NCBI GenBank assembly: GCA_008802785.1
Contig: VUYT01000049.1
Coordinates: forward strand, 21,064 to 85,063
Source: Symmetrospora coprosmae
Lineage: Eukaryota > Basidiomycota > Cystobasidiomycetes > Symmetrosporaceae
Length of the DNA stretch: 64,000 nt
Direction of reading: 5' to 3'
Shown here: positions 30,293 to 48,316 of the stretch, piece by piece
How the letters are laid out: each line of letters starts with the position of its first letter
How positions within the stretch are numbered: position 1 is the stretch's first letter
The notes under the pieces: model-generated
Seen by the model: the letters and a program-made list of their open reading frames with translations, nothing else
Told to the model about the DNA's origin: nothing
Database searches by the model: none
Position numbers and translations under genes: made by a program

Positions 30293-32322
30293 ATGCGGCC
30301 GTCCCCATCATCCCTCCATCGCGTCATGCGCGCTTCTCCCGGAGCTGCATCCAATATCGGACCTTTGCGCTCTCCTCCAGCGCGTTGGCCGCGTCCTCAA
30401 CTGCCGCTCCATCCAGTTCGAACATCGCCAAGATCCAGGGCAAGTCGCCGCCGTGCCATATATACACGCGTATGGGCCGCTTATGCAGGGTCACCACGCT
30501 CTGATTCCAGTCGTTCCCTTCTCCATCCTCCCTCGGATGGCCTTGCCTCGGGCACGGATGCTCATGGAGATGTCCTTGCTCGCTCTGCGCCGGCGCCCTC
30601 TCAGTGCGATGTGGAATGTGGGTCGCCGCTCGATTGTTGCAAAAGGAGCAGCAGATGTTGATGTTGTATAGGCCGTCGTCAGCTTCTCCTCCGGTGGCTC
30701 GGACTCAATAACGACATCCCCGACATCGAGATAATCCGGTGGAAGGTAGGCACAAGCGGGCATATCCCACGAGACGCATCCCGCTAACGTGCCCTGTGCG
30801 CAGCCGATATACCTACCGTGCTGGCAAATGGACTTCTCGCTTACGATACAAGCGCGGTTGGAAGGGGATGACCACAGCCTGGTCCTGACAGCCGTTGACA
30901 TCCCCTTCTGTGGAGCGGGCCCGGAGGTTGCGCCCCTCGGCACCTCTGGACATGGCTTCTGGCCCATGTCATTGATATCTGCCGAGCTACAAGACTACGA
31001 TCCTACTAAGCATTCGGACATCTTCCAGTCCTGCGATGTGCCAGAAGGCGAACCTGTTCCATCCGCGCAACCGATGGCTTTCACGCTGGGTCCCCAAGAT
31101 GTGCTCGGACACGTCAACAGGGTCCTTGCAAACGTCAGGAACGATGAGGTTCGCTTTCCAGGAGGTAACAAGACGACTCTCTTTGCCGCCTACCCATACT
31201 ATGCTCCCATGTATCTCATCGAGGGCCGTGACAAGAAGGTGGAGGCCGGTAGCAGTGTGAGTGACCGGTCTTCGCCTCAAGGCGATGCCTTCGCTCATCG
31301 CCGCAATTCCTATCCAGATCACGGCGCTATATTCTGGCCGCGCGGACGTGAGTATGAGCAGCTTTGGGTGACACGGCGTAAAGCGGCGCGGACTGTCGGC
31401 TAAGGTCCGTTCTTCTCGCAGCCATCCTCCTTTGGACACGCCAAAGGATTCGGCCTATGGCAGCCAGAAGAGGGCGTGTGGGCCCCGAGTGGCGGGCATC
31501 CGCTCACCGTCGAGATCATGGCCTTTCAGAAGCCCAAGATCGTCCCCAGCTTCCCGGGTCGTAGCGATGCGGCGGCCAGCGACACGTCTAGCGAAGGTAG
31601 CGACAAGCCTTTCATCAGCAATCCCTTCGAGGCCGCGCGGCAAGCTGCTAACTCTGGATCCTACGATGGGGCACCTTCTCCTTCAGACTCGTCCGAGGGC
31701 ATGGGCGGGACGCTCGGGGCACTAAAATTCCGCGCGCTCGTCGCTGTCGCCGGAGAGCTGGTCAAGGATGCCATGCCCAAGGCCCTGGAGACTGCTCTTT
31801 TGCCCGAGAACTCTGCCATTCTCGGATTGAATGCCGCATCGAATCACGAGGCCGTTGCGCGGAAAGTGGCCACGATACCCAACGCCGTTGCCTTCACCGA
31901 GACGGGCGAGCGGAATCGGAGATATATCAAGGCCATGAACGATATCAGAAGCGCTACTGAACAGTTGAATGTGGGTCGAGAGTAGTAGACGAGCTCCAAC
32001 CTCAAACTGATCCGCTTTGTCGCATTGCAGGCCGCCAAAGCGATCCCGAGCATGAAGGAAGGTGTCAAGGTGGCGCTTGTGCCGTATGGTAGATCAAGGG
32101 TAGGCGCTCTCTGCCGAAAGCGCTCTTTCGGCCTCGCTGACCGAGAACGCCCTGCCTCATCAACGCTAGATTCCTATGAAACGCCTCGACGCGAAGGGCC
32201 TGGCCGAGTACAAGGCTGAGGCCGTAGCCGAGGCGAGCAAGAGCCTCTCGGCGGCTCAGCAGGAAGCGGAAGAGTCTTACCCGGAGTGGGCGAGGCAAAG
32301 CAACCCGCATGCCAAGTTCTGA
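30293..32322 (+). CDS. Probable mitochondrial protein of unknown function
   Basis: Preferred model: six exons (30293-30617, 30672-30745, 30804-31256, 31422-31970, 32031-32099, 32170-32322), 540 aa, all phases consistent. The first 70 or so residues contain many Arg and Ser and almost no acidic residues, as in a mitochondrial presequence. A segment LLRWLGLNNDIPDIEIIRWK leads into YLPCWQMDFSLTIQARLEGD. The C-terminus has Ala/Glu-rich helices and ends NPHAKF. I do not recognise the family. An alternative start at 30537, with one longer intron from 30666 to 30803, would give 450 aa and also keeps frame. I prefer the first model because its introns have the usual length here. Exons 3 to 6 are firm; the 5' end is not. 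Confidence 0.62.
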
Positions 32323-32863
32323 CCGTTGCACGACGGCGACAAACGGGGATTTCGGAGTCGAGGAGCCGCGCGGGCTGGTCTCATGGTCGCTCGGACTGGC
32401 AGGCGGAGGAGGCATCAGCGCAGCGGAAATTTGGCCAGCCGCTGTATCACGTAGAGCAGATGTCACGTATGTGCCAGCATTACGTGATTGCCCAGAACTC
32501 GTCCAGGAGACGAAGTGTCGCAAAATCGCCTCGCTTGTTTCTCCTTGACTCTGCTCCTCCCACTAGCCATCTTGACAGCCTGAGAGAGTGTGGCCTGACC
32601 TCTCGGCCAAGCATTCTAGCTGTCGCGTTCTAGCTACAATGAGCCTACGAAAGCACGATCCGCAAGAGAGGCGACGTCTTTCAACGTGCCGTCCCATGCG
32701 AAACACTGAGGGGGTTCCACGCTCGGGACAGACCAGCTGCCCCACCCCGCGTGGAAAGGGTCTACCTATGTGCGAGAAGGAGAAAGTAGCTTGCGAGAGA
32801 CGGGAGACGGGAGACGGGAGACGGAAAACGAGAGCGGAGAAGAGAGAGGAGAGGACGAGGAGG
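32323..32863. other. Convergent spacer downstream of the Fanzor-like gene
   Basis: Tail-to-tail region. It holds a short GGGAGAC heptamer repeat at about 32798-32824 and nothing else I can name. In TnpB/Fanzor systems the guide RNA is usually made from sequence next to the 3' end of the nuclease gene, so this is where one would look. Confidence 0.45.
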
Positions 32864-35800
32864 TCAAGTGCGGACGAACGTGTGAGGCTGGTTGGGGTCA
32901 GGAGCGACGTAGCCCGCCCAGGTACCCGCAGGGATGGTCACGAACGGCTGTTCGGCAGGACCGACATTGAACGGCGGCCGCCGACCATCGGTCTCGATGT
33001 AGTGTCCGAGGATGTAGCAGTGGAGACCGCCGCTGTTGGCATCTCGGTTGAAGACGACTTGAAGCTGTCCAGGAGGGTTGTTGGCGTTCGGTGCCGCACG
33101 CAAGGACGCGTCGAGAGCGTGTGCTTGTCCGAGCGTTGCTGGGTGTGGGCAAAGAGCATGCGTGCAGCCCTGCACCCTATGTGTCGGTCTCCCTGAAATG
33201 GTGTGCAGTGTCAGCCACGGCGACGACGGTCGGAGAGAGAGCAGACGCGCGCACATTCTGGAACGCCATGAGCGCTAACGAGACCAGCTAGCGTGCCATC
33301 AGCTCGCTGACAGTGACGTTGCAGACCATGATGGCCATTGTTGCGACGCCGTCGCTTGACAGTCCTGTTCGGAGGAGAGTCACCTCAGTTAGAGCATTGC
33401 ATTGCAAAGCCTCGCTCGCATAGACATACTTGTGCGCTGCGTTCTGGCACTTGAAGACCACGCGCTCTAGCGTCTGCACGCGATGGACATGCTGGTTTGC
33501 CTGAGGCTGCACTGCGCCATTCTGCCAGATATCGCCCTGGAAAGAGCAAGCTGCGATAGTAGACGTGCCGCGCTCGCGTACGAGAACGACAGTGTGCCCG
33601 AGAATAGCCAAGAGGCGAGCCAAGGACTGTAGCACGTATCGTCAGTTATTTTGCCATAGAAGTCAACAAGCCTAGATCGAGCAACCTACAAGCTGTGCCG
33701 CTGCCGCGTGTCCGCCTGCCCAAGTGTTGCCCTGTCCGAAGCCGAATGCCACAAGTGCTTTGAGTAGGTGGACAGGGCGGTTGAAGCGGATGCGGAGAGC
33801 ATCTCGGATTGAGCCAAGAGCGCGCTCTCGACGTGGATGTTTGAGGTGGAGAGGGCGACCGGAAGCATGGAACTCGGCGTGCGTAATGTCGCCCACGACG
33901 TATCGAGCCAGGCGAGTCTCCTGGGAGGCGCGAGTGACCTCGACTGTTCGGCGCCGTCGCGTGGCCCTGACACGGCGTTTGTAGAATGCTCGCAATTTGC
34001 CGTACACAAGCGCTTTCTGCGCTGTGTAGACCGCGTTCTGCGGCGGTAAGATTGATAAGCCTGTCAGTAGCTTCCCTATGATGAGGAAAAGATAGGCAAA
34101 CTCACCAAGCGAATGTCGCAGCCTTCTCTCGCGATCTGCAAGCCGCGCAAGTGATCTATCATGGTGTTTACCGAATCGCGATTGAGCAGAACTGCACGAG
34201 CTGCATCAGATGCACGGGCATCTCTCTCGTTGCGATTTGACCAAGCTGTGGCTGTAGCCTCCAGGCTGTGACGTCCTCGCTCGAGTCGAACATGCGCTGC
34301 CGTGCCTGCTCCGGCTTGATGCGCTTCTGGCAGGTGCGCGTCGACAGCTGCCACCTGATAGACCTGTCCAGGATCCATGCCAATCAAGCGACGGTTGGGG
34401 TTATGAAAGACTGCGGCGGGGAGAAGTGGCGTGCGGGAAATGGAAGTAAGAGAGCCGGTGCTGTCCCCGCCCGGGTATGTTGTTTCGGGCGGAGGTACAT
34501 TCTGATGCCGTGCGATCTTGACCAGCTCTTCGACGCGGGTGATGCGGGACTGCCGAACGTAGGCTGGGACATTCGAAGCCATCTTGACGCGTATCTTGAG
34601 GTCCTGACCGTCTGTGATGATGGCGATCGATTCGAGCTGATTGTCCAAGCCGCCTGTGTACAGGAGGGTCAGCTTCGTTAGACTCGAAAGACTCGAAAAG
34701 ATGCTGTTGCACTAACATAAGCGTATAGTATCCGGGCTCGTTACGGTCTGGCCGAACATCCCAGGAAAGAAGCGCGCAAAGGCAGCACGCTGAGCCTCGC
34801 CTGTCATCCCACTTGCGGCCGCGTAGCGTAGGGGAGCGTTGGGGAGGTGAGGCTAACACAAAATGTCAGTGAATTGATATCTTGGGGAATGGAGTACTGA
34901 GACAGACTCACCGTCCGATTGATAGCAACGTCGACGTCGGTGAACTGATACATGCCTCCTCTCGGCCGTCGGAGAGCAGGGAGCAGGGCGCTCGCAAGAA
35001 TCTTGTAGTCGATGGGAATACGCTCATCTCGATATTCATTCTTATCCGGGGTGAGCTTGATGCCCTTGTAGTTGCCAGGCAAGACACCAAGCGCATTGGC
35101 AGATAGATGTCGGTGCATTTGACCGGCGTACCGCAAGAAGAGGAAAAGACGAGTACCGATTCGCCAGTCTCGCGCCATGATGTCATCCCAGCCCTGATTG
35201 TGCCCGGCATCGTCGTAAATGTCGCGAGTGGTAGGGTAATTCACGAGTGGGGCTGCCGGGGGAACGTTGGTGAAGGTAGGAAGATGTGGAAGCAGAGCGG
35301 AGTTGAGCAGCTGAATGATGGGCTGAATAACTCGGAGCCACCGAGCTCTGTGCGCTTGGCTGATTGGCGCGGGAAACATCGGATGCTGTCCGTTGTAGGG
35401 CAGCGCGGGTGCATTCAAAGGGTAGTGAGCAAGCTTGATGAAGCGGGGATGCAAGAACGCTGCTGTTCGCTCTGCAAGCGTATCAAAATGCGCAGCTCCC
35501 TGCCCTTGCGGGAAAAGAACTCTGCGCAGATCGCTCAAGACGACGCGGATCGCAGCAGGCACGGCCTTCTGAAGGTGTGTCTTCAAGTTACCGGCTCGCA
35601 AGCCTTTCACCTGGTCGACAAACGAACGCCAACTGTACGTGGACGTCCGCAGATCGACCATGGTGCTGCCTGGCACTCGAATGCATGCATGCACGTTGGA
35701 CTGGTAGATCTGCCGTAGACTGCCGCCAGCAAATTGGGGCGTGAGGAGACAGTCCAGCACTTCGCGCTGGAAGCCGTAGTGCAGCTGGAAGGGATTGATG

Positions 35801-36183
35801 GGATCTGGATGTGCGGGACGTGTCGTAGCGGGAAATGCGGGGATGATGTGTGGGATGGCCAGTGGGACAGGTCCGAGAAGGATGGGAGGAACGCTGAAAT
35901 GGTCATAGGAAGGAAACGGGAAGAGGGCGGTAGGCTGACGGGTAACAACTGCGCCGAGCGGGACAGTGAGGTATCCGTACTGAGCGAGCTGGTTGTCGAG
36001 GATGTTTGCGAGGAAATCGTGCTGAAGAACAGTGAACTCGTAGTGGAGCTGAGTCGCTTCGCCAGCGAAGTGTCCAACTTGCCAGACGAGTCGTGTTTTC
36101 TTGCGCGAGCTCCAGAGAGGGGGAAGAGCGGCACGGAGCTTGACACGCGGGTAGGTACGGATGCCTGGATTACTGGGGGCCAT
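32864..36183 (-). CDS. TnpB/Fanzor-like RuvC-domain protein
   Basis: Seven exons (36183-34912, 34852-34717, 34653-34106, 34037-33690, 33626-33430, 33364-33255, 33192-32864) give 979 aa. Every junction keeps phase; intron 5 has donor GTATGT, a CTAAC branch site and an AACAG acceptor. The first 520 or so residues are unrecognised. Then come RuvC-I-like RLIGMDPGQVYQVAAVD (Asp563), an Arg-rich helical stretch, and VAFGFGQGNTWAGGHA. VVLVRERGTSTIAACSF follows (Glu786, Cys795), then RVQGCTHALC (Cys880, Cys885) and VVFNRDANSGG (Asp921). This is the order of TnpB/Fanzor nucleases: Asp, shifted Glu beside a TS motif, zinc knuckle, NRD. The first half of the zinc knuckle looks degenerate. If active it would be an RNA-guided DNA endonuclease. 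If not, it may be domesticated. No terminal inverted repeats were recognised. Confidence 0.6.
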
Positions 36184-36573
36184 GGGCTATCAAGAACGCA
36201 GTCAGCAGCATATTAGGATATGGTTAGCAGGAGAGTGTTACGGACAGGATCTAGCAACCTGGAGAGGAGACGGAAGTACTGACGCGGCAGCGGTGAGGGC
36301 GACTGGAATGGGAGGTGTAATGCTATGAGATGGATGCTTGGAAAGTGAAGGAGAGAGGAGCAGGACGAGCTAACGATCTGTATTTATGCAGGGAGTCAAT
36401 GAAAAGACGGTCTCCAGAGCGCAAAAGGTCCGTTGTCAGGCTTTGGATCTCGTTGTCAGCGTCGTCAGGGGCTTTGCGGGAAGGCTCAAGACAAAGGCGG
36501 AGATTGACAATGGAAGCAGCATCGACGTTGTTTGCAGGTGCTCCTTGGCTATACTCCAATACTGCATCACACA
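36184..36573. promoter_or_regulatory. Divergent promoter region
   Basis: A 390-base head-to-head space between the Fanzor-like gene (-) and the coiled-coil gene (+). It contains AT-rich patches and no recognised element. Confidence 0.4.
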
Positions 36574-38481
36574 ATGTCAGCCAATTCGATGAGCATGTCG
36601 CCGGCGCCAGAACCTGCTTTGCGCGATCTGAAAAGCCTCGAAGAGAGCATCACTCGACTTGTGCAGACAAGCCTCGGAGAGATAAAGGAGGAGATGCAGA
36701 CAGGCTTTCAGAGTATGAACGATAAGCTCGACGGCTTCGAGAACGTGCTGCAGGAAGGACTTCGGTCAGGTGTGCCAACAAAGTACGCCCAGCAGATTCG
36801 AGATCAGGAACGTCAGCTACGCGAGCTGCGCGGGCAGCTGGCCAGCAGCGAAGCGACCGCAGAGCGGTTGCGGAACACGGACGGCATGAAGCTCGGTCAG
36901 GCGCTACAGGCAGTCAGTGCTGCAGCGAGACAAGTAACAGCGCCTGCCAAGACAAAGTTCACGGAGTTAGTTGGAGACGTCGTTCGGACCAAGGTGATGC
37001 AGTATCATTCCGCCGGTCCTTTGGCCGTAGCTGACGGGTGTTGCCAATCAGGAAATGACCAAGGCGAAAATTAGAAGTCGATTTAGAGCGTTGACGCGTG
37101 TCAATGGGGCAGATACCCTGCCAGCGGAGAGCAGGAGCACATTGGACAAGAAGCATCCTCTGTGGCCGCTGTTCAGCTCGATTGCGAGCGAAGGTGTGTA
37201 TAGACGCGCAGCGAGCATGCAGTTTAATGAACGCGCCTACTGATACCCTTGCTATCAGTTGACATGATCAACTTCTTCGTCGACCCCGCGAACCGAGCGT
37301 TGGCCAACATGCTGCCGCAGCCCGGCAATTGTCAGCTTTGGCTGACGGAGCAGCCCTGCAGAACAATCGGAGACATGCCCGATGACAGCCTCGAGCTGCC
37401 TGTGCCGGAGTCGTTGGGTCAGCCTGAGCGCAAAGGAAAAGGTGTTGCTAGCAAGGCATCGACCGGCTTGGCGTCCCAGCTTGCATCCACACGTGCGCCA
37501 GGCACCGACGCTGCCGTCGACTTGCACCCCACCGACCTTGCGCAACTCTTCTCGCTTCCGGAAGGCCCGCCCACCACGTTCTACGCCGATCTCTCGGCTC
37601 CTCTCATGTCACAGGCGCCTGCGGCTGAGCCTGGCACCAGCTCTCGGCCTTCAGTCACAGCCAGGTCCACCTCGTCTGCATCGAGCAAGCGCAAAAAGTC
37701 TGCCAGTCCCCCGCCGGCTACGGGTAACATCCTCTACGACAATTACAAAGATTTGAACAGCTACCTAGCCGGAGAGTGGGGATTCACGAAAGAGCCGGAG
37801 GCCACACACCTTCACCGGAGCCAGTCCAACCGCGAGCTCTCCGCAGATGCGGAAGAGCGCCCACCGACCCAACGTCGACGGGCAGAGACCACAGCGGCCG
37901 TCAGGGTGCATCCGTCGGAGCTTCCGACCTTTCACAGCCAGAGTCTCGCCCTTTTCAACCTGCACTCGACGCCGGCACACAGCGACCCTTTCATTGCTCA
38001 ATCAGCCCCGCCTCAGCAGAGCACTCATCTCTTCTCCGAATCTAGCTTCCCTCCTCCCTCTTTCAGGCCTGCCATGGAAAGGCAACCCTCCTTCCCAGCC
38101 TACCCATCAGCGACTGCGGGAAACCGCTCGTTTCCGCCAACGTTCACCTTGCCAGACGCTCATCGAATGAGATCGGCTACCACCTCTACGATGAGCTCCG
38201 CATCAAGTCGCCCGCAGTACAGTCCCACCAGCCCTGTCACCTTCCAGGCTCCGACGAGCCCAGCCCGCTCCCGAACGACCAGTAGGAACACCAGTCCGAC
38301 GCACCGCCTGAGGCGACAGCCGTCTAAAGCAAGCAGCTTGCACGGCAGCTTCTTGCCTGAAGAGACTCCTGGGCAGCTGGAGTCGGACGCGGCGAGCCGT
38401 ACACGAGAGGCTCGTAGAGATGCAAGCTACACAGTACCGATCTCACATGTACCCCACGACGCTAAGACCTTGCTCAAATAA
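36574..38481 (+). CDS. Coiled-coil and disordered protein of unknown function
   Basis: Three exons (36574-36993, 37052-37193, 37259-38481) give 594 aa. The first 140 residues are helical and coiled-coil like (LEESITRLVQTSLGEIKEEM, then IRDQERQLRELRGQLASSEA). The centre has ALTRVNGADTLP, HPLWPLFSSI and VDMINFFVDPANRAL. The C-terminal half is Ser/Pro-rich and disordered with basic KRKK and RRRR patches. I do not recognise a family. Intron phases (0 and 1) fit. The pattern would suit a nuclear regulatory or scaffold protein, but this is only inference. Confidence 0.72.
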
Positions 38482-38649
38482 AGGCAGACTGCCTGCGCAA
38501 GTTCTGCGTTCACCCAATGGTGTCGCGTCTCCAAAAAGCCTGTGCAAGGTTTCCGGGCACGAAAGCCCATTCTGTGCCATTGCTGTCTGGTCGTTTTGTT
38601 GTCTTGTTGTCTGGTCGTCTGGTCGTCCCTCTTGTCGATGGTGGCCACC

Positions 38650-38766
38650 TCAATGCTCATGCTCAATGCTCATGCTCAATGCTCAATGCTCAATGCTCAG
38701 TGCTCACTGCTCAATGCTCGTCCTCAAGATTAATGCTCGATGCTCGATGCCCAATGCTCAGTGCCC
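38650..38766. repeat. Heptamer minisatellite (CAATGCT)
   Basis: Tandem AATGCTC/CATGCTC units, at first regular, then diverging (CAGTGCTC, GATGCTCG). It lies upstream of the CPL1-like gene. Copy number cannot be counted cleanly because units vary in length. Confidence 0.85.
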
Positions 38767-38882
38767 AGCTTCATCCACTACGTACTTACAGGCACTGGCT
38801 ATACCAATCATTCGAGAAGATACAGGTTGAGCCCGCCTGGCAGACCGTTCCACCCGTCCAGCCCAATCCTCCACACTGGCAA

Positions 38883-38995
38883 ACGGGTCGCTTGCGAACG
38901 GGGCGCTTGCGAACGGGGCGCTTGCGAACGGGTCGCTTGCGAACGGTGCGCTTGCGAACGGGGCGCTCGCGAACGGGGCGCTCGGCGGGGCGCTC
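38883..38995. repeat. 15-bp minisatellite (GCTTGCGAACGGGGC)
   Basis: About seven units with a 15-base period (cttgcg at 38891, 38906, 38921, 38936 and 38951, then ctcgcg and ctcggcg). The array ends about 160 bases before the CPL1-like start codon, in its likely promoter. Confidence 0.9.
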
Positions 38996-39154
38996 GAATG
39001 GTCACACGATGGTGCCCTTCTTCTCTCTTCTCTTCTTACCCTTCCCCCATCGCCTGCTCCTCCTCCCTCTTCGCTCTTCAGTGTCCACCACTCTCCTTAA
39101 GCAGCAGCACCCAACCCCTGTCTCTCTCGTCTCATACCCCAAAAAATAACCAAG

Positions 39155-40884
39155 ATGCGCGCCGTCTCCCTCGCCCTCGCTATGGGCGCCCTGCTCTTCG
39201 GCAGCGGCGTCTTCGCCAACGAGACTGTACACCAGGAGCGCTCCGACATCTCCGAAGCACCTTCTCACGTCCTCCAGCGCCGCACGTTCGGCCACGGCAG
39301 CTACTCGTACTGCAGCGATAAGCGGTACAAGCTCGCCTTCCACTCTGGCTCCGGCAGCTGCTCGTGCGTCTCGTCGTGCGGATCCAAGCAGAAGGAGTGC
39401 CCAGACCCACGGAGCGGCAAAGGATACGGTGCCTGCAGCGGCAAGGGATGCACCATCATCTGCAACGACGGCTTCGAGTTGAGGTGAGTTGATGGCCGTC
39501 GCCGCCCGTTTTCGTCGACTCCGTCCAAAACTCCGTGCTCACGGAAATCCCCCTTCATCCTCCACCTTCTCAACATCTCCCTATCTACCTTATCAACACG
39601 ACACGTTATACACGCATACAGCAACGGCGACTGCAAGGCCATCCCTCCCAAGTGCAAGGAGAACGAAATCATCAGCAACGGCAAGTGTGTCTGCCCATCC
39701 GGCTTCGAGGTCAAGAAAGGCGCGTGCGTGAAGATCCCGACCTGCAAGGAGTTCGAGAAGTGGAATGGCAAGAGCTGCGAGTGTGCTCCCAGTATGTATA
39801 CGCCTTTGCTATCCGTGATCGTCTGCTCAATTCATGCTGACACCCTCATCCCCGTCTCACAGGCTGCGGCAGGCACAAGAAGACCAACCAGTGCGAGCCC
39901 CAATGCCCGATCAACTCGTGGTACGACGGCAAGGCTGGCGAGTGCAAGTGCGACTACAAGTTCATCAAGGTCAACGGCCAGTGCAAGCCTGACTGTGGCT
40001 CGGACAAGGAGGTGAGCTGGCCCCTTTTGTGGCGTACTGGCTGGCCCTTCTTGCTTTGCACGCTGGCTTGACGCTGTACCTTCCCTATGCAGTGGTGCGA
40101 CGACTCCCACAAGTGCATCTGCAAGCCCGGCTTCGTCGATATCTGGGGAACATGCAAGCCGGTCCCGACCTGCCCGATCGGCCAGTCCTACGACAAGATC
40201 TCCAAGTCGTGCAAGTGCCCGGAGGGTACGCAGCTCGTTAGCAAGTGGTGCAAGCCCATTGTCCCTTCGTGCCCGAAGAACGAGGTCTACGACTTCAAGA
40301 CCAAGTCGTGCATCTGCATCCCGAGCTGCAAGCGAGGCCACAAGAACACTTGCGAGCCCGTCACCCCTCCCCCTGTCGGCCCGTCCCAGAAGCCTAAGCC
40401 TAAGCCGGGACACGGCCACTGGGCTCAGGACCTGCACAAGGCCATCTGGGACTCGCGCCACCACCGTCGCGAGCAGGTCAGTGCAACTCTTCTGAGCCTC
40501 CTCTTCCACCACTATCTTCTGACATGCTCGTACTCGCATCCAACAGGACGCTGAATTCTGCCCTGACGGACTCTCGGCCTGCCCCATCTCGCAGACGCTT
40601 GGCGGCGGCTACGAGTGCCTGGATACCACCGAGGAGCTCGAGAACTGTGGCGGTTGCACTGCCAACGGCGACGGTGTCGACTGCACTGCCATCCCCAACG
40701 CTTCCGGCGTTGGATGCCAGGCTGGCCGCTGTGTCGTCTTCTCTTGCGCAGGTGAGCATGATCCGCGCCTCGTGACCAGATCCTCAGATCTCGAGCTAAC
40801 GTGCTCTTCGCCCTCCTTGCAGCCAACTTCCGCCTCTCGCCAGCCGGCGAGTGCACGCCATCTCTCTTCTTCTCGTCGGCCTAA
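39155..40884 (+). CDS. Secreted cysteine-rich protein with C-terminal CPL1-like domain
   Basis: Six exons (39155-39483, 39622-39791, 39863-40011, 40093-40476, 40547-40751, 40823-40884) give 432 aa. A signal peptide (residues 1-21) is followed by repeated EGF-like cysteine modules, for example NGKCVCPSGFEVKKGACVK and KSCKCPEGTQLVSKWCKP. A Pro/Lys/His-rich linker comes next, then the CPL1-like domain from about 345: FCPDGLSACPIS, YECLDT, ENCGGC, DCTAIPN and GRCVVFSC. This domain is common in secreted basidiomycete proteins; Cryptococcus CPL1 is the named example. It probably acts in the cell wall or outside the cell. Exon borders fall between cysteine modules, in keeping with exon shuffling or duplication. 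Confidence 0.88.
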
Positions 40885-41936
40885 AGTAGAAGTCACCCTC
40901 TCGTCGTTTGCACAAAGCACGGACTCTCTCGTTCAGCACATCGTTCCTCATTTGTCACTTCTACGCACCACCGGGTCCCGCCATCACTGGCAGGCGCACC
41001 CTCTGGCCGCTCTTTTCCTTCTCGCCCATCGTCCTCCAACCGACAACGATGCGGCGCTCTGGACACTTTCTCTCTCGTCGGCTGCCTAGATCGCGAAACG
41101 GGCTGTTCGTCATTACTCTCTTTTACTCTCGTTCGGGGTCGTCTTATCGTTGGTAGACAAGTGTAACCCGTACTCGAGGCCACACACTTCCTTCTCCACA
41201 CCCGGCCTTGTGCCTGTGCGGCATCGCAAGGACACTCTCGATGGCTAGGCGTGCCTGTCTGCAGTAGTAATTCACATTCTTTTCATTCATTGCTTCTAGA
41301 GGTGGGCCATCGTCGGCCAGTCAATGTCATCGTTGTCTCTTTCAAGTTGCTAGAGACCTCCTAGCCTTCCGCAAGCGAGCATGAAGCGGAGAGCAGCGTG
41401 GCGGCGGGTTGGCTGGCTGGGGCTGCAGTGGGTCAGTCTGGCCTATGCCCAAGGCCACGTCCATGTAGCACCAGACTCAGGCTGTGCTGCTGCTGCTGCT
41501 GCTACTGTCGCCTGTCACTCTCTTCGCGGAACCTCGTGCGACTTCTGATTGTGGCGTTGACGCGTGCCGTCAGTCTGGCGTCGACTCGGAGTGGGCACAC
41601 ATTCGGGCAATGGTTGCACCGCACTCTGTCGCAGCCTGTTCGCACTTGCATTGTCGCCCTCTGCTGATCATCAGCATTCCCTATTGACGCTCTCTTCCGT
41701 AGCGCAAAGAAGGAAGAGCCCTGTGCGCGTCGACCTTGTTCGCGCGCGCGCGCCTTGGTCGCTCCATCCCTCCGCCCTTGCCGCCTTTTCGTCTCGCTCT
41801 GCGCACTCAACAAAAAAGGAGGCAGCAGGAAGGGGGAGCCACAAGGAGAGGGAGCAGCAAGGAGAGTGTCGACACAGCGGGAGAAGCGAGCATACTCGGA
41901 GAAGGACACCCTCTCGTTCGTGAATCAGCCCCAGCC
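40885..41936. other. Long upstream region of HMG-CoA reductase
   Basis: About 1.05 kb with no supported gene. It includes a CG dinucleotide run near 41736-41750 and Ser/Arg-type open frames without domain character. The HMGR frame stays open back to 41736, so a longer N-terminus cannot be excluded, but the ATG at 41937 is the first sensible start. Confidence 0.5.
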
Positions 41937-44900
41937 ATGCCGTCCTCAGCCTCCAGCGGCAGTGGCAGCGGCGCCAGCAGCAGCAGCGGCGGCGGTGTCG
42001 GTACCGTGTTCGCGCCGCTGAGGCTGCTCGCGAGGACTGCGAGCAAGATGCCCATCGAGGTCATCACCCTCGGGTTCTGCATCGTCACGCTGGCCTACTT
42101 CCAGCTCCTCCACGCCGTCAAGCACTCTGAGTTCCTCCATCACCCTTCAGCAGCCGGTGGAGCCGGTGCAGCGGCGAGTTCCTCGGACCATCTGGCAGGA
42201 GAGGACATAGCAGGAGGAGCAGACCCGTCGACGCTAGCAGCAGAAGCTGGCACCCTGCTCGCAAGAACTGCGACCGGCAGCTGGGTAGAGGTCCCAGCCG
42301 GCCACAGCAGCGAGGCAGTCACCCTCGTCCTGCACAGGGTCGTCGCAGGGGTCGATCTCGACCACGAGGCAATCTACCCGTATCACCATCAGGCCGCTGC
42401 ACAAGACGATCGCAACATCCTCGCCTTCCCGGCACACTCGTCGTCACCCGTCACGCTCGCAGATGAGATCACTCCCGACAGCCTGCCCACGTCTGGGAAA
42501 GCCCCTCGCGCCCTGCTTGCCAACAGCGAGCAGGCCAACGCATCCCTGCGAGACTTTGAAGACTATCTCCGAAGCTCTGCCCTGTCTGCAGGCGATGGCA
42601 GCCACCAGCGGAGACTCACAGAAGTCTGCTACAAGCCGCCTACCACTTCCATCTTTGCTGCGAGCGAGTGCTTCACCGTCTCTTTCGACACGACCGCGTC
42701 GGTCGATGGCAACTCTGCCTTGCTGTCCTTTGGTCTGCTCCCAACGCCGGAAGCGCAGGACTGGATCCAGTCGCTGGTCGCCAAGCAGCCCGTAGCTAGC
42801 TCAGATGCGCGCGGCTACTCCTACGTATCCATGTCCTCGCTGCAGAGCAGGCCCGTGGCCGACTCTGGCCTGGGCCTCTCCTTCAAGGCCTTCCCGGCCG
42901 GAACGAGCGGGCTCGCCAATGCATCTAGCATGTCCGGCAGCTATGGAGAGGAGGAGACAAAGAGCGTCCGGTGGATGCTCTATGCTGCCCGGGCCTTTGT
43001 CATGCGCTTCTACGCTCTCGCCAAGGTGGGTTGCGAAACGCGTGTCTGCACCCGTGACTTTCGCTGATTGCCATTCTGCCGGGCCCACACGCAGAAAGCC
43101 GACTCTGCCGATATCTTCGTCATGCTCATCGGATACCTTTTGATGCACCTCACCTTCATCAACACATTCATCAATATGCGCAAGCTCGGCAGCAAATTCT
43201 GGCTGGGCTGCTCTGTCCTGGTCAGCGGCACCTTCGGGTTCCTCCTTGCCCTCTTCACAGCCTCAATGATCGGCATCGCCATCAATCCCATCATCCTCTC
43301 CGAGGCATTGCCATTCCTCATCATTACTGTCGGGTTCGAGAAGCCTTTCATCCTCGCACGCGCCGTCTTCACCAACCCAGCTCTGACGCCAGTTACAAAG
43401 GACGCCCACCCGCTCCTCAAGTCGCGCGTCGCCTCCCGGTGTACGCTCTTTCCCAGCTCGGCGACAAACAAGCGTGTCTCTGCCTTTGGGCCACACCCAG
43501 ACAGCTCAAATGGAGACGACTCGACTGCATCCGTGCCCATGGCGGCTGTGCGATCTAATGGCATTCGCTGGTCCCAGCCAGTCCCTGCCAAGGACATCGT
43601 CCTCCAAGGCTTCGACAAGACGGGCAGGCAGATCGTCCGCGACTACCTTATCGAGATTGCGGTGCTCATCGCAGGCTCGTTCACCGGAGTCCCCGGCCTG
43701 AAGGAGTTCTGCCAGCTGGCGGCCTTAATCCTTTTCTTCGATTGCGTCTTCCTCTTCGGCTTCTTCGCTTCCGTCATGACGGTCATGGTGGAGGTGGGTG
43801 CGCTCGCAGGCGATGCCATCATGAGCTTGCTGACCCCGAACTGTTCGCTCAGGTCCGCCGCATCCGCATCGTGCGAGGCTTGCGAAGAGTCGACTCTTCT
43901 GCCGACCTGGCTCACATTCTCGATGATGGCACCACTCCTGATCTCAACGCACCGGTCGACGATACAGACACGGACGCCTTGACGCCCAAGCAGCGCATCA
44001 CCCGCTTGCTGTTTGGGGCGCCCGCAGGCGAAAACGGCGAGAGCCCGACTGCACGCCTCAAGATTCTCCTCATAGGCGCATTCCTCATCCTGCACGCACT
44101 CAACCTCTGCACCACTCTGACTGCCAAGACGGCTATCACGAGGCATTCGGCTGCGACCACTACCACATCACCTGCGATTTCTGCGTCAAGCTTCTACTCG
44201 CAATTTGTCAGCACCGACCCCGTCAACTCTGCCATCGCACCCGTCCTGGCCAAGCTGTCGGCCATGCACCCGTCCTATGAGATCCCGCTCGTCGTGCAGG
44301 TCCCGCCTCCGACCGTCTTCCGCATGGTCCTTCCTGGCCAGTCTGTTCGCGACATCACAACCCGGGCCGCAGCCGCGCTTGCAGACCGCAGCACCGTCGC
44401 TGGCTCGATGGCCATTCTCGACCGCTTCATGAGCGGCTGGACCAAGCTCGTCGGCGATCCCGTCCTGAGCAAATGGATTGTCATTGTGCTTGTCGTCAGC
44501 GTCTTCCTGAACGGCTATCTGCTCAAGGGCATCGCTGTCGGAGACACGGGCGTGGGAGAAGGGTATATGCCGACAAGCGCACCCGAGGCAGCCACCCGGC
44601 TGCTCCTTGGTACGAGCGGCAAAGCCGAGACTGCCATGTCCAGGATGAAGCGCCGCTGGTCCGGAGGAGTCGAGGGCCTCTCGCGGATGCAAACCGAGTG
44701 GACGCTGGCCGACGCGGCTGTCATGGCCAAGGAGCGCCGGAAGGACCTCATCAAGGACGAGAAGGACCGAGATGCTGCTGCTCTGCTGGCTGCCAAAGCC
44801 AAGAAGAGCCGCAAGCCTTCTTCATCTGCTGGCTCATCCGACGAGAGCACTGCTGGATCGCCTCTCTTCATGTCGACCAAGAAGCGGACCGCGCCTTATC

Positions 44901-46670
44901 CGACGGGCAGGCTTGTATCGGCCAATGAGAAGACGCCTGTTGTTCCTGCCATTCTTACACCGTCGAGCGATCTCGCCAACGGGAAACAGCTCGGTCACTC
45001 CGAGACTTCCTCCGAGGCCGCCACCGATACTCCTGCCACCACCGTCCTTGACGAGACCGATAGTGAGACGCCTACCGTTGGCAGGGACACCAAAGTTGTT
45101 CGCGCTCTGGAGGAAATTGCGACTGTCTTTGCCATGGGCAAAGGGGCCGAGCTTGTCAACGACGAGGAGATCATCCTGCTTGTGCAGAAGGGCAAGGTCG
45201 CCGCATACGCGCTGGAGAAGCTGCTGAAGGACCACTTGCGCGCTGTCAAGATCAGGCGAGCCCTCATCTGTGAGTATCGCGTGCTCGTCGATAGAATTGA
45301 CCAATGTTCCGTACTGAGATGGTCACGCCTTTCTACAGCACGAGCGTCCATCACGAAGAGTCTTGAGCAGTCGCTGCTGCCATACCACCACTACGACTAC
45401 AGCAAGGTCATTGGTCAGTGCTGCGAAAACGTCGTCGGCTACACACCTATCCCCATCGGTATCGCCGGTCCGCTCCGCATCGATGGTGTCGCTTACCCTC
45501 TGCCAATGGCAACTACGGAGGGCGCACTTGTCGCTTCGACATCACGAGGCTGCAAGGCTCTCAATGCCGGCGGCGGTGTCACGACTGTTGTTACGCAGGA
45601 TGCCATGACGCGTGGACCGGCTCTCGAGTTTCCGAGCGCCGCCATGTGCGGTGCGGCCAAGAAATGGATTGACAGCGAGGAGGGGTCGACCATCATGAAG
45701 GCCGCCTTCAACAGCACCTCCCGCTTCGCTCGTCTGCAGTCGCTGAAGGCTGGGCTGGCTGGACGCACGCTCTACGTGCGTTTCGCTACGCAGACGGGCG
45801 ACGCCATGGGCATGAACATGATCTCCAAGGGCACGGAGCGCGCCCTCGAGACGATGCAGACGGACCACTTCCCAGAGATGAAGGTCGTTGCCCTTTCAGG
45901 CAACTACTGCACCGACAAGAAGCCTGCCGCTATCAACTGGATCGAGGGTCGCGGCAAGAGCGTGGTCGCCGAAGGCATTGTTCCTGGCAACATCGTGAAG
46001 ACCATTCTCAAGACGACCGTCAAGGACCTCGTCAAGGTCAACATCAGCAAGAACCTCGTCGGAAGTGCCATGGCCGGTACAATGGGCGGTAACAACGCAC
46101 ACGCCGCCAACAACTTGGCAGCCATCTACCTCGCTACGGGTCAAGACCCGGCTCAGGTTGTCGAATCGGCCAATTGTATCACCCTCATGGAGGCGATCAA
46201 TGATGGTCAGGACCTGCTCATCAGCTGCACGATGCCCAGCATTGAGGTCGGCACCATCGGAGGTGGAACCAGTGAGTTCTGTCTCACACACCTCGTCATC
46301 GAGAGCCGAGCTGACTTTGCATGTCTACTCGTTAGTTCTCCCTCCCCAGCTCGCCATGCTGACCATGCTCGGGGTAAACGGTCCTCACCCTACTCACCCG
46401 GGAGAGAACGCCAGGCGCCTTGCGCAGATCATCTGCGCTGCTGTCCTCGCTGGAGAGCTGTCCCTAATGAGCTCTCTTGCAGAAGGCAGTCTGGTCCGCT
46501 CTCACATGGCCCTCAACCGGTCTGCGCCCGCGACGCCAGCCACAGTGCAGGTCACGGGTCACAGCTACCTTACGCCAGCGCCTACGCGACCAGGAACACC
46601 CGGGCCGGGCCAACCTATTGCTCGACAGCCGAGCAATCTGCATCTCACGCCAATGTCCAGACAGACGTGA
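41937..46670 (+). CDS. HMG1: 3-hydroxy-3-methylglutaryl-CoA reductase
   Basis: Five exons (41937-43025, 43095-43793, 43853-45269, 45339-46271, 46336-46670) give 1490 aa. It makes mevalonate from HMG-CoA with NADPH, the committed step for ergosterol and isoprenoids, in the ER membrane. After a Ser/Gly-rich start, a first membrane segment (about 40-60) precedes a large luminal loop. Exon 2 holds the sterol-sensing-type membrane domain. A variable linker leads to the catalytic domain from about residue 1090, with [49 protein letters not shown] and [13 protein letters not shown]. It is longer than yeast Hmg1 (1054 aa), mainly in the luminal loop and linker. The last exon ends with HMALNRS and a Pro/Thr-rich tail. 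Confidence 0.95.
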
Positions 46671-46941
46671 CATCGCAACATTGTCGTCTAGCACGCCGCC
46701 CCGATACCCGTCCAGGCAGTACCTTCTTTCATTGCGCGCCATTTGGGGGAGTAGTGTCGCTCCCGCCTCGCAGTACACATTTCGAGATGCATTCACAGAC
46801 TAGCATTGAGATAGCAAAGCATCGGCTACTTGGGGTTCGGTCTTCGGACGCATTGCAACTTGTACAGATACTTGCTCGCACTGCGCAACTTACACGGGAA
46901 CTGCTCCATACTGCTCTCGATGGTGATGCCAAAGGCATCGG

Positions 46942-48316
46942 CTACTTCCTGCTCTTGATATCTGCAGCTTGACGACCGTTCTCGAGAGTGACCTCATCTG
47001 TCTCTCTGCTCATACTCCTCAGCACCTGACTATCGTTTTGCTCTCGCGCCTTGAGGAAACAGGGCAGGTTCAATAGCAATGCGCTGACAGACGGGAAGGT
47101 GAACGTGATCAGCTCAATCAGGAAGCCAATGCGGCTGTATAAACTCACGCGCTGAACTCAGGCAGAACTGCTAGGCAGTACTCGAGGGCAGTGAAACGCC
47201 CGGTGAAGCCATCGCGGGTGTAGTTCTCCGGGTTAGTGTATGACAGCTGGAGCGGTCGAGAATCGTCAGCAATCGCAATCATGCGGGAAATCAGGAGAGC
47301 TCACCTTGTAGATGGCAGCCTGAAGAACGCCGAAGATCCCGCGGACGTGCAGGAAGAACGCGACTAGGTAGAGAGCTACCAATGCGAAGTGAAGCTTTAG
47401 GCTGAGCCGCTTGGCCTCTGATTGAGTCTTGACGAGACAGAAGGCGAAGAGCACAGTCATGGCGAAGAAGATGGCGCTGCCTGTGGTCCTGAGCATCTTG
47501 GAAATGTGCATTGCGCGGTCCATCTCCCCGGCTGTTTTGTCGCTACCTTCTGTTGTTCCAGCTAGGTACGACCCTCCCGTCACGATGAGCGTACTAGAGT
47601 AAGACAGTCGGATGAAGCAAGTCATCAGCTTCATCCGCTGGGGCGCGAACGAATAGATAGCGAACAGGCGGCAGGCACGTACTTTGCCGGGATCAGGAAG
47701 GCATGCACAATGTCCATAACCTGATCTCTGTATCTCCAGGGTGTCCACAGTGGGAGCATGAAGACGACCGCGAGCACATGCTTCCTCTGTTCGTTCTTGT
47801 CGTCAATCTGCTTCGCCAACCAGGTGTAGCCAAGGTGTTGCCTATGCCAGCTTTTGAGGAAGAGGTAGGCCGTGAGGGTCTGAAAAGTTGCCGGGAAAAC
47901 CAGGTATCAGTAAGGTTGATATCACTCGAGCTTTCCATCGGAACCTGGCTTACAAGCGTGAAGTAGCCCTCGGCACCTGTAGCCGGAACGGGAGGACCAG
48001 AGTTGAGGTTAGCCGCACACCGAGCAATGCACCGAGGCAGACAATCCGCACTCAGGACCAAGTACGCAATGAATACATCCACGTTGTCAAAGACGAGAAT
48101 GCCAAATGCGACCCCGAGAGCTTGAGACACGACTCGGATGCAGACATGCGAGAACAGGAGGGTGTGTTTTGATCTCCATTTGTAATCCTTGCGGTTGTAG
48201 CGCCAGACCATGTGTAGGAACAGGCCAAAGTAGAGCAGCGCAAACAGGAGAGCTATCCCGGCCTCTACGGTGAGGTGCCGGTTGCGGGCAGGTAGGTCGG
48301 AGGGGATGTTGTCCAT
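46942..48316 (-). CDS. Multi-pass (about 7 TM) fungal membrane protein
   Basis: Six exons (48316-48052, 47976-47954, 47879-47683, 47593-47305, 47246-47149, 47083-46942) give 337 aa. There are about seven hydrophobic segments, starting with [20 protein letters not shown], and basic loops such as [11 protein letters not shown] charged C-terminal tail ends the protein. The layout resembles fungal DUF7702-type or receptor-like membrane proteins, but I see no decisive motif, so the family is tentative. Exon 2 is only 23 nt. It is tail to tail with HMGR. An upstream in-frame ATG at 48382 exists; 48316 gives a more natural short N-terminus. Confidence 0.72.

What the first reader, a model, noticed from the sequence alone, without database searches (positions are those of the whole stretch)
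32864..36183. Intron-rich TnpB/Fanzor-like protein, a possible eukaryotic RNA-guided nuclease or its domesticated relative
Splicing seven exons by phase gives one 979-aa protein with GMDPG (Asp563), an FGFGQGN...GGHA stretch, VVLVRERGTSTIAACSF (Glu786), RVQGCTHALC and FNRDAN (Asp921) in TnpB/Fanzor order. These motifs sit in four separate exons and were not used to choose the splice sites alone. Established: Fanzors are eukaryotic TnpB homologues with an Asp-Glu-Asp RuvC centre, a displaced Glu and a C-terminal zinc knuckle. Here the first knuckle appears to have lost a Cys, and the 520-aa N-terminal half is unlike anything I can name. Six introns and no visible terminal repeats suggest an old or host-tamed copy.
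Basis: partly seen in the sequence, partly recalled or inferred. Interest (0 to 1): 0.85.

Follow-up and report, generated by a model that had tools for sequence, protein, structure and literature searches.

The report
Divergent Fanzor1-like gene in a fungus
An intron-bearing gene in what looks like a fungal genome encodes a protein with the ordered signature of Fanzor1, the eukaryotic cousin of CRISPR nucleases, but it is very diverged and lacks half of the usual zinc site, so whether it still cuts DNA with an RNA guide is open.

Summary
Introns 1-4 are well supported; splicing between 33430 and 33170 is ambiguous. Pfam, NCBIfam and PDB sequence searches do not recognise the protein, and HMMER and hhalign against a three-member Fanzor1 profile are not significant. 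The score is reached by 0 of 20,000 shuffles and 1 of 20,000 ORF concatenations (loose gaps: 8 and 19); under 50 rival tail models it stays at 36.8-47.8, the lowest reached by 12 of 10,000 ORF concatenations. The first zinc knuckle is not met (A793, S796). No terminal repeats or guide-RNA structure were found in the flanks tested. Best reading: a strongly diverged Fanzor1-derived protein with an intact catalytic triad, probably a copy without its transposon. Activity is untested.

The parts
34912..36183 (-). exon 1, aa 1-424
   Evidence: modelled frame best of the three sense frames
34981..35022 (-). RIPIDYKILASALL (aa 388-401), matches Fanzor1 HVRIDTIILYQHIL / YMTVDSKILNYHIL
   Evidence: rank 1 of 966 positions; references
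34853..34911 (-). intron 1, 59 nt, GTGAGT...TAG
34717..34852 (-). exon 2, aa 425-469
34654..34716 (-). intron 2, 63 nt, GTTAGT...CAG
34106..34653 (-). exon 3, aa 470-652, carries TDG and RuvC-I
34607..34615 (-). TDG (aa 483-485), WED motif described as characteristic of Fanzor1
   Evidence: (block rank 5 of 961); paper passage
34373..34375 (-). codon of D563 in RLIGMDPG (RuvC-I)
   Evidence: block rank 1 of 966
34038..34105 (-). intron 3, 68 nt, GTGAGT...CAG
33690..34037 (-). exon 4, aa 653-768
33720..33746 (-). FGFGQGNTW (aa 750-758), place of the Fanzor1 GDWS/GNWS block
   Evidence: block rank 2 of 970; references
33627..33689 (-). intron 4, 63 nt, GTAGGT...CAG
33430..33626 (-). exon 5, aa 769-833
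   Evidence: reading stays open past 33430, so its 3' end is uncertain
33561..33578 (-). RERGTS (aa 785-790) with Glu786; the first zinc knuckle that should follow is degenerate (AACS)
   Evidence: block rank 3 of 964; references IDEFRTS, LDEYKTS, PEHYTS
32864..33192 (-). exon 7, aa 871-979 and stop
33149..33181 (-). HRVQGCTHALC (aa 875-885), same spacing as the Fanzor1 second knuckle H-x4-C-x4-C
   Evidence: block rank 1 of 968; references HGLLRCKNMSC, HGLLGCTNPNC, HHLLRCTNDSC; the His is lost in most rival tail models
33041..33043 (-). codon of D921 in FNRDAN (RuvC-III)
   Evidence: block rank 6 of 969

Best explanation
A strongly diverged Fanzor1-derived protein of a fungus, probably a basidiomycete. 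It most likely keeps the TnpB/Fanzor build: an N-terminal half with REC and WED elements including TDG, then a RuvC nuclease with D563, E786 and D921 and a C-terminal knuckle region of which only the second half is canonical. Shown: the ordered motifs and an open multi-exon reading frame. Inferred: common descent with Fanzor1, the RuvC fold, and binding of a structured guide RNA. No terminal repeats were found beside it, so I read it as a copy without its transposon, kept or slowly decaying in the host. If it still works, it would bind a guide RNA and cut or mark DNA next to a short TAM; I put retained RNA-guided cleavage at about one in four.
For: Seven blocks taken from SpuFz1, GtFz1 and PpFz1 (TDG block from two of the three) occur in order: score 47.8 against means of 16.9 (shuffles) and 17.7 (ORF concatenations); 0 of 20,000 and 1 of 20,000 reach it; with loose 10-400 aa gaps 8 and 19 of 20,000; reversed protein 12.8, loose gaps 24.0. 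With the 50 best tail models the score is 36.8-47.8 (median 41.6); 12 and 4 of 10,000 ORF concatenations reach the lowest and the median. The ordered regex TDG...DP[GN]...E-x2-TS...H-x4-C-x4-C...NR[DN] matches the protein and 0 of 20,000 ORF concatenations; without TDG also 0 of 20,000. TDG, DPG and the displaced Glu are described for Fanzors in PMC10711439 (passages). The C-x4-C second knuckle is in 3 of 3 solved Fanzor1s; L79 (9b0l) and TnpB 9nzp have C-x2-C there. Open frame over seven exons with GT-AG introns.
Against: No significant match by phmmer to PDB, by Pfam or by NCBIfam. A three-sequence Fanzor1 HMM gives -1.2 bits; hhalign scores below the shuffle mean and 191 of 300 shuffles reach it. 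The block score is far below the leave-one-out scores of the real Fanzor1s, 98-150. Single blocks are not all outstanding: TDG ranks 5, RuvC-II 3 and RuvC-III 6 within the protein. A cruder five-block version was weaker: 3 of 1500 shuffles and 25 of 1500 ORF concatenations reached it. Blocks, narrow gaps and regex spacings were set after seeing the protein. The first zinc knuckle is absent, the Arg-Asp after DPG is absent, and E786-D921 is 135 residues against 65 in SpuFz1. Tail splicing is ambiguous.
Confidence: 0.76

Rival explanations
1. A decaying Fanzor1 transposon relic: once a mobile-element gene, now under little constraint, with the zinc knuckle already broken. (A sub-case of the best explanation, not exclusive of it.)
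For: First knuckle lost; exon 6 fails the codon test and tail splicing is ambiguous; no terminal repeats in the flanks tested.
Against: Open 979-aa frame, modelled frame best of the sense frames in 6 of 7 exons, consistent intron signals; all three catalytic residues kept.
Confidence: 0.3
2. A host-domesticated Fanzor1: kept for a cellular task (RNA-guided binding or cutting, or RNA binding alone), perhaps with a rebuilt zinc site using Cys795, Cys880, Cys885 and a further ligand. (Also a sub-case.)
For: No terminal repeats found in the flanks tested, several introns, intact triad, about 390 bp from its start codon to the first ATG of a plus-strand open frame at 36574.
Against: Copy number, orthologues and expression unknown; no genome held; no relative confirmed in the viral or prokaryote scans made.
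Confidence: 0.25
3. An unrelated fungal protein in which short motifs imitate Fanzor1 by chance.
For: No profile search is significant; the Bao-Jurka motif without its zinc finger matches 18,162 of 20,000 ORF concatenations.
Against: The full ordered set is at or beyond the edge of both null distributions, also with rival tails; TDG lies where the Fanzor1 literature puts it (seen after I had noticed it).
Confidence: 0.2
4. A Fanzor2 or a recent prokaryotic TnpB acquisition.
For: DPG and the displaced Glu are shared by Fanzor2 and some TnpBs (passages).
Against: Length 979 aa, C-x4-C second knuckle and TDG point to Fanzor1; several introns; no prokaryotic relative of exon 1 confirmed.
Confidence: 0.04

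Closest known systems
Fanzor1 of Parasitella parasitica, PpFz1 (PDB 9cf0)
   Same: Order IDxxxL, TDG, DPG, GNWS-like, E-x2-TS, H-x4-C-x4-C, NRD
   Different: Has a CPKC first knuckle and DPGRRD; no significant sequence match to the window protein
Fanzor1 of Spizellomyces punctatus, SpuFz1 (PDB 8gkh)
   Same: Same ordered blocks; D383-E541-D606 triad
   Different: D-E 158 and E-D 65 residues against 223 and 135 here; DPN not DPG; complete zinc finger
Fanzor1 of Guillardia theta, GtFz1 (PDB 9cer)
   Same: DPG, E-x2-TS without a preceding Asp (PEHYTS), C-x4-C second knuckle
   Different: Third catalytic residue is Asn (passages); here Asp921
TnpB-like L79 (PDB 9b0l) and IS200/IS605 TnpB (PDB 9nzp)
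   Same: TnpB-superfamily C-terminal order; L79 has NEYLTT before its first Cys, like the displaced Glu
   Different: C-x2-C second knuckle; PMC10711439 places TnpB and Fanzor2 apart from Fanzor1

Membership tests
Fanzor/TnpB (Bao & Jurka motif) | D-X(125,275)-[TS][TS] spacing | tested here: met
   D563 to T789-S790, but the motif without the zinc finger is uninformative alone (18,162 of 20,000 nulls match)
Fanzor/TnpB (Bao & Jurka motif) | C4 zinc finger after [TS][TS]-X2 | tested here: not met
   Strict C4 regex fails; A793 and S796 at the first CxxC, only Cys795 nearby; second pair C880/C885 present
Fanzor/TnpB (Bao & Jurka motif) | RD 5-50 residues after the zinc finger | tested here: met
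   R920-D921, 34 residues between C885 and R920
Fanzor (PMC10711439) | DPG at RuvC-I | tested here: met
   GMDPG 561-565; block rank 1 of 966; literature
Fanzor (PMC10711439) | RuvC-II Glu six residues before the zinc finger | tested here: inconclusive
   E786-x2-T789-S790 matches E-x2-TS of solved Fanzor1s, but the zinc finger that defines the position is degenerate and the paper's full regex fails
Fanzor1 | TDG motif in the WED domain | tested here: met
   TDG at 483, collinear with SpuFz1 and PpFz1; described as characteristic in PMC10711439. That it lies in a WED fold is not shown
Fanzor1 | Second knuckle C-x4-C (read here from three PDB sequences) | tested here: met
   C880-x4-C885; kept in 49 of the 50 best tail models; 3 of 3 solved Fanzor1s
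Fanzor1 | His five residues before that knuckle (H-x4-C-x4-C) | tested here: inconclusive
Fanzor1 | Significant profile similarity to known Fanzor1 | tested here: not met
   hmmsearch -1.2 bits; hhalign 191 of 300 shuffles as good; only three reference sequences, partly incomplete
Fanzor1 | RuvC and WED fold | tested here: inconclusive
   Single-sequence AlphaFold2 of exon 1 (mean pLDDT 34.1) and exon 3 (48.8) too poor to judge
Fanzor1 | Carried by a transposon (terminal repeats, transposase) | tested here: not met
   No shared inverted 11- or 12-mer between 31901-32864 and 36184-37100, one 10-mer where shuffles give 0.76; no transposase family in 30 of the 129 ORFs of at least 150 aa. PMC3627910 says some Fanzor elements show no terminal inverted repeats
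Fanzor1 | Adjacent guide RNA (omega/reRNA) | tested here: inconclusive
   3' flank folds no better than shuffles (z 1.52, 92 of 100 fold as well); no Rfam match at gathering scores in the window; no expression data
Fanzor1 | RNA-guided DNA cleavage | not testable with these tools
   Needs biochemistry

The most novel reading that the evidence does not exclude
A Fanzor1 that has left its transposon and become a fungal host gene, with its zinc-binding module remodelled and its catalytic triad kept, acting as a cellular RNA-guided nuclease or RNA-guided regulator.
Probability: 0.18. Interest if true: 0.82.

Novelty: new variant of a known kind. Interest (0 to 1): 0.45.

Why it matters
The three Fanzor1s with structures found here come from two fungi and an alga (that Parasitella is a fungus is general knowledge). 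A further fungal member that standard profile searches miss, with the triad kept but the first knuckle gone, would suggest that Fanzor1 diversity is under-counted and would give a natural test of whether that knuckle is needed for guide-RNA binding or cleavage. If orthologues are conserved at the same place, it would be a candidate for a tamed eukaryotic RNA-guided nuclease.

Tried and rejected
Profile recognition of the single protein: phmmer against PDB, Pfam, NCBIfam (C-terminal 509 aa only), all negative; the one PDB hit (hemocyanin, E 1.5) I take as noise. HMM of three Fanzor1 C-terminal halves, -1.2 bits; hhalign with a longer three-sequence profile, no better than shuffles. First block test with unweighted BLOSUM scores and five blocks: only modest (3 of 1500 shuffles, 25 of 1500 ORF concatenations); it was replaced by an information-weighted seven-block test, a choice made after seeing the first result. 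Relatives: viral contigs with the C-terminal 509 aa, a PpFz1 fragment, a Fanzor1 alignment and exon 1, and genome contigs with exon 1: pattern hits in each, none confirmed by tblastn. Paralogues in the window: none by tblastn at E 0.01, only the gene itself. Own genome: not held. Structures: exon 1 and exon 3 folded alone, too poor for a fold search, so none was run. Direct and inverted repeats around the gene, terminal repeats, guide-RNA folding and Rfam: nothing that marks an element. The bacterial promoter/terminator scan does not apply to a eukaryote; it found no promoter and 4 terminator-like sites, about as in shuffles. Papers: 'Fanzor' with 'TnpB', 'fungi', 'basidiomycet', and 'Fanzor' with 'basidiomycete', returned 0 papers in this library; this says nothing about papers outside it. 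Searches were read as listings only. Four papers were seen as passages, none in full.
Full report
What is there. The region 32864-36183 carries, on the minus strand, an open multi-exon gene. Splicing seven exons (36183-34912, 34852-34717, 34653-34106, 34037-33690, 33626-33430, 33364-33255, 33192-32864) gives 979 aa and a stop. The six introns are 59-68 nt, GT-AG, each with a CTRAY pentamer. In a codon test trained on 659 codons of Pfam-matched stretches the modelled frame is the best of the three sense frames in 6 of 7 exons, although its absolute scores in those six are near zero (-0.03 to -0.10); exon 6 fails, and in exon 3 one antisense frame scores about the same (-0.05 against -0.07). A second test, trained on 4398 codons of eight long ORFs of which several have no family match, has the exon-5 frame as the best sense frame from 33640 to about 33140. 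Of the 50 best, 47 keep RERGTS, 50 NRDAN, 49 GCTHALC and 3 HRVQGC; the last acceptor ends at 33170 in 33, 33177 in 10, 33193 in 3, elsewhere in 4. I take introns 1-4 as well supported and 33430-33170 as open.

The setting. G+C is 0.56-0.63 in the 32 two-kb steps of the window. Of the 129 stop-to-stop ORFs of at least 150 aa, 30 were scanned against Pfam and 9 had a match: HMG-CoA reductase, CPL1-like, C2, MUG190-like SMP, RRM, RPN1 N-terminal, proteasome/cyclosome repeat, TPR (just above its cut-off) and PAPA-1. That this is a basidiomycete is my own inference from CPL1-like and the intron style; it was not tested. No transposase family was among the matches. The flanks 31901-32864 and 36184-37100 share no inverted 11- or 12-mer and one 10-mer, as chance would give.

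Ordinary recognition fails. PDB by phmmer, Pfam and NCBIfam return nothing meaningful. Scans of viral contigs with the C-terminal 509 aa and with exon 1, and of genome contigs with exon 1, confirmed no relative. No genome is held. The homology test open to me was therefore against three solved Fanzor1 chains, parts of whose sequences I read from PDB search outputs, using probes typed partly from memory.

Comparison with Fanzor1. The solved chains share, in order: an [IV]D-x3-L block, a TDG block (seen in two of three; that part of GtFz1 was not displayed), DP[GN], G[DN]W, E-x2-TS followed by CPxC, H-x4-C-x4-C and NR[DN]. The window protein has RIPIDYKIL (388), TDG (483), GMDPG (561), FGFGQGNTW (750), RERGTS (785), HRVQGCTHALC (875) and FNRDAN (918). 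An information-weighted score over seven blocks is 47.8; 0 of 20,000 shuffles and 1 of 20,000 concatenations of other ORF peptides from the window reach it; with uniform 10-400 residue gaps 8 and 19 of 20,000 do; the reversed protein scores 12.8, or 24.0 with loose gaps. Replacing the tail by each of the 50 best models gives 36.8 to 47.8, median 41.6; 12, 4 and 0 of 10,000 ORF concatenations reach 36.8, 41.6 and 47.8. The ordered regex from TDG to NR[DN] matches the protein and 0 of 20,000 ORF concatenations.

Limits of that comparison. Blocks, narrow gaps and regex spacings were set after looking at the protein. A cruder five-block score was only modest. Within the protein the TDG, RuvC-II and RuvC-III blocks rank 5, 3 and 6; IDxxxL, RuvC-I and knuckle 2 rank 1 and GxW ranks 2. 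The score is far below the leave-one-out scores of the real Fanzor1s, 98 to 150 (GtFz1 over six blocks). HMMER and hhalign over whole regions find nothing.

What differs. At the first zinc knuckle A793 and S796 stand where the solved Fanzor1s have Cys; Cys795 is displaced. The Arg-Asp after DPG is missing. D-E and E-D spacings are 223 and 135, against 158 and 65 in SpuFz1 (D383, E541, D606; PMC10432273, passages). Bao and Jurka include a C4 zinc finger in the strictly conserved motif (PMC3627910, passages); by that test the protein is not a canonical member, and I do not file it as one. PMC10711439 says that many, not all, TnpBs and Fanzors contain the zinc finger. In GtFz1 the third catalytic residue is Asn and the enzyme still cuts (PMC11423790, passages), so departures from consensus do not by themselves mean loss of activity.

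Structure. AlphaFold2 without an alignment gave mean pLDDT 34.1 for exon 1 and 48.8 for exon 3. Exon 3 shows two strands near TDG, which would fit a WED element, but the model is too poor to count as evidence.

How it most likely works. If Fanzor1 descent is right, the N-terminal half would hold the guide RNA and read a short TAM, and the RuvC centre D563-E786-D921 would cut. Whether a protein without the first knuckle still binds its RNA is the open point. I found no sign of a guide RNA: 331 nt around the stop codon and 3' flank fold no better than shuffles (z 1.52), and Rfam has no match at gathering scores in the window. The lack of terminal repeats with an intact frame fits either a tamed host gene or a stranded copy; the data do not separate them.

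Verdict. The gene and motifs are confirmed with an unsettled tail; the Fanzor reading is supported as Fanzor1-derived (0.76, unchanged by the checking, since one search kept the result under rival tails); activity and domestication are untested. It is a diverged variant of a known kind.

Noticed in passing
window 32797-32824: Four perfect copies of a 7-bp tandem repeat (GAGACGG) about 40 bp downstream of the stop codon of the gene.
   Followed up: no
window 38580-38996: Cluster of short tandem arrays (8/16-bp, 7/61-bp and 15-bp units) about 2.4 kb beyond the 5' end of the gene.
   Followed up: no
window 40523-41086: Open frame with a CPL1-like match (Pfam PF21671, E 7.3e-19).
   Followed up: no
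window 43559-46969: HMG-CoA reductase match within a 1137-aa open frame (E 5.7e-116).
   Followed up: no
window 33140-33640 (minus strand): The exon-5 frame stays the best-scoring sense frame through the proposed intron 5 and past the in-frame stop at 33288-33290; not explained by the seven-exon model.
   Followed up: partly
window 36574-38478 (plus strand): Plus-strand open frames whose first ATG lies about 390 bp from the gene's start codon, with no Pfam match; possibly a shared promoter interval.
   Followed up: no
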